From the NCBI GenBank assembly GCA_900537125.1, contig UNRJ01000001.1, positions 496,001 through 560,000 of the forward strand: 64,000 nucleotides of DNA, in the 5' to 3' direction. This document shows positions 60,142 to 64,000 of the stretch, piece after piece (position 1 is the stretch's first letter; each line of letters begins with the position of its first letter). Origin of the DNA: Rhodobacteraceae bacterium Alg238-R152. Its GTDB lineage: Bacteria; Pseudomonadota; Alphaproteobacteria; Rhodobacterales; Rhodobacteraceae. Under the pieces are notes generated by a model, which was not told the DNA's origin, did not search any database, and was given only the letters and a program-made list of their open reading frames with translations. Both the position numbers and the translations under genes were made by a program.

Positions 60142-60165
60142 CCAAGCTGAATGAGGATAAAGACG

Positions 60166-60855
60166 ATGGCAAAAGATCATCCCACCGTTCTCTTGGTTGA
60201 AGATGAACCAGCGCAACGCGAAGTTCTTAGCTACAATTTACAGGCCGAAGGGTTTGACGTTGAAATAGCCGCTGACGGCGATACCGCCTTACTGATGGTA
60301 CAAGAGGTGCAACCGGACATCATCGTGTTGGACTGGATGCTTCCGGGCATCTCAGGTATCGAGATTTGCCGCCGCCTGAAGACACGAAGTGAAACGCAAA
60401 AAATCCCGGTGATTATGTTGTCTGCACGCTCTGAAGAAGTGGATCGGGTGCGTGGCCTGGAGACAGGTGCAGACGACTATGTTGTAAAGCCGTATTCCGT
60501 GATGGAATTGATGGCGCGGGTGCGAAATCAGCTGCGCCGTGTTCGTCCATCCTCAGTTGGTCAAACGCTGACCTATGAAGACATCATGCTGGACGCTGAA
60601 ACCCACCGGGTCACCCGCAATGACGCAGCACTGCGGCTTGGGCCAACAGAATTTCGATTGCTGGCAACTTTTATGGAGAAACCAGGTCGCGTGTGGAGCC
60701 GGGAACAACTCCTGGACCGTGTTTGGGGCAGGGATATCTATGTCGACAGTCGCACAGTGGACGTGCACATTGGTCGTCTGCGCAAGGCGCTCTGTGTGCA
60801 TGGTGGCGATGATCCACTACGGACGGTGCGCGGTGCCGGATATGCTTTGGGTTAG
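60166..60855 (+). CDS. phoB: Phosphate-regulon response regulator PhoB
   Basis: 229 residues. Receiver domain with acidic pocket VEDEP, phospho-acceptor in IIVLDWMLPG (Asp about 54), KPYS Lys, and OmpR-type winged helix (about 130-228) ending VDVHIGRLRKAL ... GAGYALG. Family length. GAGG 9 nt before ATG 60166; an ATG at 60151 is inside that Shine-Dalgarno stretch and less likely. Phosphorylated by PhoR; binds the Pho boxes found upstream. Confidence 0.96.
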   Translation: MAKDHPTVLLVEDEPAQREVLSYNLQAEGFDVEIAADGDTALLMVQEVQPDIIVLDWMLPGISGIEICRRLKTRSETQKIPVIMLSARSEEVDRVRGLETGADDYVVKPYSVMELMARVRNQLRRVRPSSVGQTLTYEDIMLDAETHRVTRNDAALRLGPTEFRLLATFMEKPGRVWSREQLLDRVWGRDIYVDSRTVDVHIGRLRKALCVHGGDDPLRTVRGAGYALG

Positions 60856-60874: not shown

Positions 60875-60901
60875 AAGGAGCGTGCTTAAAGTGCGCTCTT
60901 T
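60875..60901 (+). terminator. Weak hairpin after phoB
   Basis: AAGGAGCG and CGCTCTTT can pair over 8 bp (one G-U) with an 11-nt loop, 19 bp after the phoB stop. The T tract is only three residues long. Confidence 0.4.
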
Positions 60902-60980
60902 GGTGTTACTCTATTAGGGTACAAAGTTTCTTCCAATAAATGGCTCAGTTGGAAGTAGCGGGCTCCTGTGATGGCTCAAG

Positions 60981-62037
60981 ACTCGTTGCGACGTTTTCCG
61001 CTATCTCAGTATCTCTTCTTTGAAGGCCTCGGTCGGCGTGCGCCACCCAAGGCATTTTCTGGGGGTTCCGTTCAGGCGGTCACAAATCGCCTTCATATTG
61101 CGATTTGAAAGCGCCGCGAGCTGGGTGTCACGAGGCAGATATCGCCGCGCCCGTTTGTTTAGATTCTCAATCGATCCTTTCTGCCAAGGAGCCTGCGGGT
61201 CACAGAACCAGCTTTCCGTGCCAATGCCAGATTGCAATCTGCGCCATTCGCGGAATTCAAAACCGCGGTCAAAAGTGATTGAACGACGTGCTGGTTGGGG
61301 CAGGGGTTCCATCACATCCATCAGCTTGTTCATCAGATGCGTCGAGCTGCGATCATTGTTACGGAACAGGACAGCGAACCGCGTCTTGCGCTCCACCAGA
61401 GACGCCACATTCATGCTGCCTTGCGCGCGCTCAAAGATCATCAGATCACCTTCCCAGTCTCCGAAGGTCTCACGGGTATTCACATGGTCCGGACGTTGAT
61501 GGATGGAGCGATCTGGAGGAAAAACCTGGCCTCTGGGCCGTCTGGCGTAACGAGGTCGTCGTTTCTTGCGTCGGCTGGGCAAGTGCCGAGCCAATTGCTC
61601 GGATTGACCTTCAGGGCTGTAAACATAGGCATAGATCGTTTCGTGACTGATGCGAACTGGTTGCCCGTCATACTCGAGCCGGCCCGCAATCTGTTCTGGC
61701 GTCCATCCTGTTTTCAGGCGCTCAATTACATGGGTACGCAAATCTTCCAGACGGATGAGTTTGCGCCGTCGAGCGCGTCTGGCTTCTGCGAACTTCTGGG
61801 CATTCACGCCATAGTATCCGTCCAGATAAGGCAGTTCGTTGTCTTCAAAGCCATTGCGCTTGATCTCACGATAGATGGTGCTGCGATGCCTGCCGATCTC
61901 AGTTGCAATCTTGCTCACGGGCAATTTCGCGTTCAACATATCTTCAATTGCGCGTCTCTCACGCAGATCCAGCTCTGTGTGCGCCATGTTCAATCTCCTT
62001 GCTTTTCAGCAAGATAGGGGATTTGTCGCAACCCAGT
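60981..62037 (-). mobile_element. IS30-family insertion sequence
   Basis: About 1.06 kb. Both ends share the 8-mer GTTGCGAC (60985-60992) / GTCGCAAC (62025-62032), and a CTATCT further in, giving an imperfect inverted repeat of about 26 bp. The single transposase gene fills the rest. I cannot see a convincing target-site duplication, so the exact outer ends are uncertain. The insertion sits between the pst/pho operon and the damaged luxR-like gene. Confidence 0.8.
61001..61987 (-). CDS. IS30 family transposase
   Basis: 328 residues, full length for the family. N-terminal helix-turn-helix (HTELDLRERRAIEDMLNAKL region; KIATEIGRHRSTIYREIKRN, in part) and a DDE catalytic core with Asp in FGDWEGDLM, Asp in ITFDRGFEF and Glu in KGSIENLNKRARRYLP (in part). 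No internal stop or frameshift, so it may still be active. I start at ATG 61987, 7 nt after AAGGAG; a TTG two codons before is possible. Confidence 0.94.
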   Translation of the reverse strand: MAHTELDLRERRAIEDMLNAKLPVSKIATEIGRHRSTIYREIKRNGFEDNELPYLDGYYGVNAQKFAEARRARRRKLIRLEDLRTHVIERLKTGWTPEQIAGRLEYDGQPVRISHETIYAYVYSPEGQSEQLARHLPSRRKKRRPRYARRPRGQVFPPDRSIHQRPDHVNTRETFGDWEGDLMIFERAQGSMNVASLVERKTRFAVLFRNNDRSSTHLMNKLMDVMEPLPQPARRSITFDRGFEFREWRRLQSGIGTESWFCDPQAPWQKGSIENLNKRARRYLPRDTQLAALSNRNMKAICDRLNGTPRKCLGWRTPTEAFKEEILR

Positions 62038-62378
62038 TTAGAATGTGCCCGGCTCCATTACGTTAGCCGCATAATAAGTATTATGTAAATTACCGAACTG
62101 CGAAGGATCGGAGGGTTTTCCTTACAAGCCAGGTTTCACCACCGGACGACCTTGCTTGCGCGCGGCATAATAGATCAGCCACGATCATACAGAGGTTTCC
62201 GATCAGTTACCGCAAAGAGACAGCTCAACGCAGGCTAGACATCCCACACGTGTTTACTATAATCTTTCTGGCAGTTCATGGGGATGAGCTGTGCGTTAAG
62301 ATACCCCACAAATTGTCTTGGTTCAGATCTGCCACCATTGGCCGCGCAGTTCTGTGTTATGTGTAACAGAGGGTCACG
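62038..62378. other. Intergenic stretch next to the insertion sequence
   Basis: About 340 bp with no intact gene. A minus-strand frame at 62122-62184 ends AARKQGRPVVKPGL-stop, which looks like the C-terminal tail of a lost protein but is too short to assign. Otherwise AT-richer than the surroundings. The promoter of the luxR-like gene should lie near 62300-62370. Confidence 0.45.
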
Positions 62379-63171
62379 ATGAACGACACGATCGACTACA
62401 TCGAAAAAATTATGAACCAGACTAGCCTTGAGGCGCTCTGGGACGTTCACTGCGCAAAAATGCAGTCTTTTGGCTTTGACAAAATCATCTACGGATACAC
62501 CAATTACCGAAGCGGTATGTCACTTGGCGATGTGGAAGACTTCTTTATCCTCTCAACCTACGATCGAGACTACCTTGATGAGTTTATTGGTGGCGGTCTC
62601 TATTTCAATGGCCCCATGATGAAATGGACATTGGAGAATGCAGGCGCGCAAAGCTGGCGCTTGGCCCGCGAGGCCTATGATGCTGATACACTTTCTGAGA
62701 AGCAACGCCAGGTTTTTGAATTCAATCAAGACTACGGTCTGGAATGAATTCAATCAAGACTACGGTCTGGAAGCGGGGTATACGGTCAGTTTCCCCACGG
62801 TTTCGTCTCGCACCAAAGGAGCCATTTCCCTGGGGGCGCGATCTGGCGTAACACAGGAGTCGCTTGATGCGTTGTGGGAAAAGTCGGGACGCGACATTGC
62901 TTTGATCAACAATGTGGCACATTTAAAAATCCAGTCCCTGCCCTACGACAACCCAGAGCGCGAACTCACCAGCCGTCAGCGTGAAGTGCTTGAATGGGTT
63001 GGAGATGGTAAAACAATTCAAGACATTGCGCTTTTGATCGGACGCACGCCGGCGACGGTTGAGAAGCATTTGCGGCTGGCGCGTGATGCGATGAATGTTG
63101 AGACAACGGCCCAAGCCTTGCTCAAAGCGACCTTCATGCGGCAAATTTACTTGCTTGAAGGCCCCAGCTGA
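62379..63171 (+). pseudogene. LuxR-type regulator disrupted by a 28-bp tandem duplication
   Basis: Residues from ATG 62379 (after GAGG) form an autoinducer-binding-like domain (SFGFDKIIYGYTNYRSG; LTDF-type FFILSTYDRDYLDEF) and stop at a TGA at 62745-62747. The second half, in another frame, carries the rest of that domain and a GerE/LuxR helix-turn-helix (ELTSRQREVLEWVGDG; TPATVEKHLRLARDAM). The junction is an exact 28-bp tandem repeat (62717-62744 and 62745-62772). Removing one copy joins both parts into one frame of 254 codons. No luxI gene is in the window. Function as a truncated protein is possible but unsupported. Confidence 0.85.
62717..62772 (+). repeat. Exact 28-bp tandem duplication
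   Basis: Two identical 28-bp units, 62717-62744 and 62745-62772 (unit begins TGAATTCAATCAAGAC). Since 28 is not a multiple of three, the copy shifts the frame and creates the TGA at 62745-62747. Confidence 0.97.
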
Positions 63172-63791: not shown

Positions 63792-64000
63792 TTAGCCCTG
63801 AGCGGCTTTGGCCACTTCTGCTGCGAAGTCTTCTTCTTTTTTCTCGATGCCTTCGCCCACTTCCATACGGACGTATGCAACAATCTCAGCACCGGCTTCT
63901 TTGGCTGCGGCTGCAACGGTCAGATCCGGGTTGATGACGAAGTTCTGACCCAGCAGAGTGACTTCGGCCAAGAATTTCTTCATGCGGCCCACGATCATCT
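63792..64000 (-). CDS. tsf: Elongation factor Ts, C-terminal end (continues past window)
   Basis: The last 68 or so residues of EF-Ts, the nucleotide-exchange factor for EF-Tu: [27 protein letters not shown] (in part: [13 protein letters not shown]) and the C-terminal core helix, ending VAKAAQG. The frame is open to the window edge, so the start is outside. Codon use is strongly biased, as for a translation factor. It converges on the histidine-phosphatase remnant. Confidence 0.93.

What the first reader, a model, noticed from the sequence alone, without database searches (positions are those of the whole stretch)
62379..63171. LuxR-type regulator switched off by an exact 28-bp tandem duplication
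Two perfect 28-bp copies (62717-62772) put the signal-binding and DNA-binding halves in different frames. Deleting one copy restores exactly 254 codons with no other damage. Both copies are identical, so the event is very recent; slippage could reverse it, making it a possible on/off switch of quorum sensing or a laboratory-selected loss. An assembly error must also be considered.
Basis: seen in the sequence. Interest (0 to 1): 0.7.

Follow-up and report, generated by a model that had tools for sequence, protein, structure and literature searches.

The report
LuxR solo broken by tandem duplication
In one marine Shimia-type bacterium, a conserved regulator gene that is intact in the relatives found to carry it is cut in two by an exact 28-base tandem duplication; this is probably an ordinary, young loss-of-function mutation rather than a built-in switch, and whether the gene senses quorum signals at all is open.

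Summary
Two identical 28-bp copies lie at 62717-62772 and put residues 1-122 and 114-254 of a LuxR-type protein in different frames. The genome falls in the marine genus Shimia. The gene is the LuxR solo next to tsf, published in 2015 as group 1 of unknown LuxR solos. In all 24 other genomes of the genus searched and all 80 named loci fetched it lies in one open frame; none of 11 relatives aligned at the site has the second copy.

The break falls inside the signal-binding domain, not between domains. The protein carries W57Y, Y61F, D70G and E178Q, so it may not bind AHLs. No relative has a repeat here and the ends show no microhomology, so nothing suggests an evolved switch; passive reversion is plausible but untested. 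An assembly join error gets no support from 812 kb of the genome or its contig ends, but only reads can exclude it.

Best reading: a young, probably strain-specific null allele of a core solo regulator.

The parts
62379..62747 (+). first piece of the LuxR solo: 122 codons plus TGA, about two thirds of the autoinducer-binding domain
62717..62744 (+). 28-bp repeat, copy 1
62745..62772 (+). 28-bp repeat, copy 2; begins with the TGA
62746..63171 (+). second piece in another frame: end of the autoinducer-binding domain and LuxR/GerE HTH domain, with stop
62070..62085 (.). palindrome CATAATAAGTATTATG upstream of the gene, the only exact CATAATANNTATTATG in the genome held; candidate operator (inference)
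61001..61993 (-). transposase ORF (HTH_38; weak rve; IS30-like by recall) of an insertion between phoB and the LuxR solo
63792..64000 (-). tsf (elongation factor Ts), 3' part inside the window; conserved neighbour that marks the solo's group
60151..60855 (+). response regulator gene upstream, phoB by its position after pst/phoU-like genes (name recalled)

Best explanation
A single, young mutation duplicated 28 bp in tandem inside a conserved, tsf-linked LuxR solo of a Shimia-type strain. Because 28 is not a multiple of three, a TGA arises at the junction of the copies and translation ends after 122 residues, in the middle of the ligand-binding domain; the DNA-binding domain is left in another frame. 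Shown: the duplication, the frame break, its absence from relatives, and no other stop or indel in the gene. Inferred: that no working regulator is made, that the mutation is strain-specific and arose recently in nature or in culture, and that it could revert passively by losing one copy. It is probably not an evolved switch.
For: Exact 28-bp duplication. Single copy in 11 of 11 relatives aligned at the site. In 24 of 24 other genomes of the genus the first-piece match lies in one open frame of 254 aa or more; in 80 of 80 named loci the frame is open for at least 248 codons; both pieces share a frame in 109 of 109 relatives' loci, a set that counts some genomes twice. The two pieces align without internal gaps to 254-aa orthologues. 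Window-to-relative over relative-to-relative difference is 1.56 and 1.81 for the two pieces, inside the 0.61-1.96 of 14 neighbouring genes though in its upper part (five relatives). Pairwise dN to six relatives was 0.072-0.083, dS saturated in 5 of 6 pairs. No second copy of the gene in the genome.
Against: No raw reads and no second isolate of the species could be examined, so neither fixation nor reality in the cell is shown. Classical slippage usually leaves microhomology (recalled) and here there is none; no Ku match was found; the mutational route is unexplained. Ten residues unanimous in six close relatives differ in the window, against 0-6 for each of those six, and the ratios of the two pieces exceed those of 11 and 13 of 14 neighbouring genes; both would also fit a somewhat older loss.
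Confidence: 0.72

Rival explanations
1. Assembly artefact: the true genome has one copy and the assembler joined two ends that overlap by 28 bases without merging them.
For: The duplication is exact, without microhomology, of a length that a short-k assembler overlap could have (recalled), and breaks a gene that is open in 24 of 24 other genomes of the genus.
Against: No other exact tandem duplication over 12 bp in the window plus 40 own stretches, 812 kb or about 19% of the genome, 4.3 kb of it unreadable. Contigs C1-C12 show no exact end-to-end overlap of 15-300 bp; many ends share longer repeats. No N in the window; genome scored 99.96% complete.
Confidence: 0.15
2. Reversible phase switch: cells move between one copy (regulator on) and two copies (off) often enough to matter.
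For: A perfect 28-bp direct repeat is a plausible slippage substrate, and the two-copy strand folds better than most shuffles (z -2.63; 3 of 200 shuffles as good). Duplications inside capsule genes are reported to control phase variation in pneumococcus (titles of Waite et al. 2001 and 2003 in a reference list, and one citing passage).
Against: No relative carries a repeat at the site and the one-copy sequence has no direct repeat at the duplication ends, so the forward step is not favoured. No population data.
Confidence: 0.07
3. The split gene still makes an active product: a DNA-binding piece acting without signal, or a truncated piece that blocks other LuxR proteins.
For: HTH-less LuxR proteins can act as antagonists: CerN of Cereibacter sphaeroides (abstract and passages). 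The isolated C-terminal domain of LuxR is active in Vibrio (recalled). The second frame has ATG codons upstream (62638, 62677, 62680), and after the break CTG 62830 has GGAG 8 bases before it and TTG 62872 has AGGAG 12 bases before it.
Against: CerN keeps its autoinducer-binding domain; here that domain is cut at Pfam position 99 of 149. There is no ATG in the second frame after the break before the HTH; the upstream ATGs would add foreign residues; the ATG at 62744 is in the third frame (position arithmetic).
Confidence: 0.06

Closest known systems
Group 1 of unknown LuxR solos (tsf-linked, Rhodobacterales), 2015 survey PMC4338825 (abstract and passages seen)
   Same: LuxR-type solo beside tsf on the opposite strand; same substitutions at conserved positions (W57Y, Y61F, D70G, E178Q).
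   Different: The window copy is split by a 28-bp tandem duplication; Shimia is not in the genus list of that table row.
Duplications inside pneumococcal capsule genes (Waite et al. 2001, 2003; only titles in the reference list and a citing passage of PMC4022640)
   Same: Short duplication inside an open reading frame that inactivates it.
   Different: Their titles report phase variation; here no reversal is shown.
Agr phase variants of Staphylococcus aureus, PMC6686034 (passages)
   Same: Quorum-sensing regulator lost by local sequence change; one variant had a duplication within agrA, and no revertants of it were obtained.
   Different: Unrelated two-component system; the revertible cases were a duplication plus inversion in agrC and a poly(A) tract.
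CerN of Cereibacter sphaeroides, PMC11655674 (abstract and passages)
   Same: LuxR-type protein without its HTH, also in Rhodobacterales (order recalled).
   Different: CerN has the autoinducer-binding domain with all six pocket residues and a shown function.

Membership tests
LuxR-type autoinducer-binding regulator (PF03472 + PF00196) | Autoinducer-binding domain followed by LuxR/GerE HTH | tested here: met
   Both found above cut-off but spread over two pieces in different frames: PF03472 63.4 and 30.5 bits, PF00196 30.6 bits. Relatives have them in one frame.
Group 1 tsf-linked LuxR solo (PMC4338825) | luxR solo next to tsf on the opposite strand | tested here: met
   tsf at 63792-64667, minus strand; tsf matched on 74 of 80 relatives' loci.
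Group 1 tsf-linked LuxR solo (PMC4338825) | W57Y, Y61F, D70I/G/A, E178Q (P71V listed too) | tested here: met
   Read by eye from the profile alignment to LasR and alignment A3: Y, F, G, P unchanged, and Q in the HTH. TraR itself was not aligned.
AHL receptor of a complete quorum-sensing pair | luxI gene beside it | tested here: not met
   The only LuxI match of the genome lies on contig C9; this gene is on C1.
AHL receptor of a complete quorum-sensing pair | binds AHL | not testable with these tools
   Pocket positions W57, Y61 and D70 differ; ligand unknown.
Phase-variable (contingency) gene | repeat tract conserved at the locus in relatives | tested here: not met
   In 80 relatives' frames the only exact tandem duplication of period 8-120 is one 8-bp case in L080, at another place. 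Single copy at the site in 11 of 11 aligned.
Phase-variable (contingency) gene | reversible change of copy number in a population | not testable with these tools
   No reads, no second isolate.

The most novel reading that the evidence does not exclude
The two-copy allele is a natural, revertible off-state of a core Rhodobacterales LuxR solo: populations hold both alleles, and loss of one 28-bp copy turns the regulator back on, giving bet-hedging in a regulator that is intact in the relatives examined that carry it.
Probability: 0.05. Interest if true: 0.55.

Novelty: new member of a known kind. Interest (0 to 1): 0.22.

Why it matters
If real, the strain is a natural mutant of a regulator found in all 25 genomes of the genus searched (own genome included), listed from many Rhodobacterales genera and placed among the unknown solos in 2015. 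Comparing it with intact relatives could show what the solo controls. It also warns that phenotypes of this strain, if it is used as a reference, may be those of a mutant. As a mutation type it is ordinary.

Tried and rejected
Chance repeat: rejected. A second copy that would make the loss harmless: none. Old pseudogene: disfavoured by the lack of further lesions and by neighbour-gene ratios, though the ratios lie in the upper part of the range and substitutions alone cannot date the break. Translational restart at the ATG overlapping the TGA (62744): wrong frame. Microhomology-driven slippage: no direct repeat at the ends. Ku end joining: no Ku match in the genome (of 14 control genomes only B. 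subtilis rings). Assembler overlap signature: not found. Solved structures with the first piece alone: no match. NCBIfam: no match for the first piece, only sub-cut-off matches for the second. Papers: a lasR duplication search found nothing; led to PMC6686034 and PMC4022640; two searches gave nothing that I used; one search listed PMC4022640 again; PMC4338825 was listed. Passages of PMC4818494 (Shimia SK013), PMC4602140 and PMC3907830 gave nothing on the tsf-linked solo. The only search naming Shimia was; I make no claim that the allele is unreported. Script faults: one search stopped with an error; my start offset gave empty genes for L085 and L091, so one search scanned 78 of 80; one search repeated the scan on all 80.

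Full report
WHAT IS THERE. The window holds two identical 28-bp copies in tandem at 62717-62744 and 62745-62772. The array scores 112 in Tandem Repeats Finder; the next best of 17 rows in the window scores 44. The base before copy 1 differs from the last base of a copy and the base after copy 2 differs from the first base of a copy, so there is no microhomology at the ends (letters). The duplication lies in a LuxR-type gene. The first piece (62379-62747, 122 aa) ends at a TGA at the junction of the copies; the second piece is open in another frame to 63171. Pfam finds the autoinducer-binding domain in both pieces (positions 2-99 and 94-148 of 149) and the LuxR/GerE HTH in the second. The break is therefore inside the ligand-binding domain and not between the two domains.

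WHERE IT COMES FROM. The window is bases 496001-560000 of contig C1 of a 4.27-Mb genome in 14 contigs. The species of the window was not identified.

RELATIVES. With the first piece as query, 32 of 60 genomes match: all 25 of the genus (own genome included), 7 of 11 from other genera of the family, and 0 of 24 from other families of the class; in the 24 other genomes of the genus the match lies in one open frame of at least 254 aa. In the 80 named loci kept (the best 80 of 533 that encode a relative) the frame around the gene is open for at least 248 codons. Both pieces lie in the same frame in 109 of 109 relatives' loci; the only 3 loci with different frames are copies of the window's own region. 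The 109 count some genomes twice, because the unnamed and named collections overlap. An alignment of the site shows the 28-base insertion in the window and in none of 11 relatives. In the frames of the 80 named loci the only exact tandem duplication of period 8-120 is one of 8 bp at another place.

AGE. Identity of two 28-bp copies is weak evidence for youth: it only bounds their divergence below about 10% (my arithmetic). Better evidence is that the pieces show no other stop or indel. The ratio of window-to-relative to relative-to-relative amino-acid difference is 1.56 and 1.81 for the two pieces, against 0.61-1.96 in 14 neighbouring genes, with tsf at 1.67 and rpsB at 1.71 (five relatives; one neighbour was matched over only 64% of its length in one relative). 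That is inside the range but above 11 and 13 of the 14. Also, 10 residues unanimous in six close relatives are changed in the window, versus 0-6 in each of those six. So there is no sign of long decay, but a somewhat older loss is not excluded.

ARTEFACT OR REAL. If an assembler had left unmerged overlaps, similar exact duplications should occur elsewhere. In 748 kb of other stretches of the genome plus the window (812 kb, about 19%; two short contigs, 4.3 kb, read as N) the only other exact tandem duplication of period 12-300 is one of 12 bp. Contigs C1-C12 share no exact end-to-end overlap of 15-300 bp; many ends share longer repeats. In 1.47 Mb of the 80 named loci four exact tandem duplications of period 15 or more were found, of periods 16-21, none in this gene. 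An artefact is thus not supported but is not excluded without reads.

WHAT THE GENE IS. It lies beside tsf, which is on the opposite strand; tsf matched on 74 of the 80 named loci. A 2015 survey lists 'luxR solo - tsf (C)' as group 1 of unknown LuxR solos of many Rhodobacterales genera, with substitutions W57Y, Y61F, D70I/G/A, P71V and E178Q (PMC4338825, abstract and passages). The window pieces show Y, F, G and an unchanged P at the first four of these positions and Q at 178, read by eye from the profile alignment with LasR and from alignment A3. So the gene fits that group, and the same survey says that such changes question AHL binding. The only LuxI match of the genome is on contig C9, next to a response regulator and a histidine kinase gene, and the only other match to the autoinducer-binding domain is on C5, near thymidine kinase. 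Calling the damaged gene a quorum-sensing regulator is therefore a guess.

HOW IT MOST LIKELY WORKS. The duplication shifts the frame and ends translation after 122 residues. The truncated domain is unlikely to fold (inference). After the break the second frame has no ATG before the HTH; its candidates are GTG, TTG and CTG codons, of which CTG 62830 has GGAG 8 bases before it and TTG 62872 has AGGAG 12 bases before it, so weak expression of a DNA-binding piece is not excluded. The likely result is loss of the regulator (inferred). Loss of one copy by slippage could undo it; the two-copy strand folds better than most shuffles (z -2.63). But the forward step has no predisposing repeat and no relative examined shows one, so this is not an evolved switch on present evidence. 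How the duplication arose is open: no microhomology, and no Ku match in the genome.

SURROUNDINGS. A transposase gene (HTH_38 above cut-off, rve below its cut-off; IS30-like by recall) lies between the phoB-like gene and the solo; the stretch 60900-62200 occurs once in the genome, and the insertion is missing in the five close relatives aligned. It lies upstream of a conserved leader. That leader holds the palindrome CATAATAAGTATTATG, the only exact match of its pattern in the genome; exact matches lie in 7 of the 80 named loci, 100-370 bases before the same gene. It may be the operator of the solo (inference).

NOVELTY. The gene fits a published group, and duplications inside open reading frames that inactivate genes are known (PMC4022640, passages and reference titles of Waite et al. 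2001 and 2003; a duplication in agrA without revertants, PMC6686034, passages). I rate it a new member of a known kind, with low interest unless population data show reversible switching.

Noticed in passing
window 62070-62085: Palindrome CATAATAAGTATTATG, the only exact CATAATANNTATTATG of the genome, upstream of the LuxR solo; exact matches also in 7 of 80 named relatives' loci. Candidate operator.
   Followed up: partly
window 62180-62380: The 200 bp before the LuxR solo are well conserved in the five close relatives aligned (blocks such as AGACATC, CACGTGT, AGTTCATGGGGATGAGCTG), perhaps a regulated leader.
   Followed up: no
window 61001-61993: Single-copy transposase gene inserted between the phoB-like gene and the LuxR solo, absent in the five close relatives aligned; a second event of this lineage about 0.7 kb from the duplication.
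   Followed up: partly
L116 11398-11985: Divergent LuxI-type synthase with no autoinducer-binding LuxR beside it, next to a response regulator and a histidine kinase gene; each of the 25 genomes of the genus has at least one LuxI match.
   Followed up: partly
L117 7722-8600: The genome's other LuxR with an autoinducer-binding domain lies near thymidine kinase, a context like group 5 in PMC4338825.
   Followed up: partly
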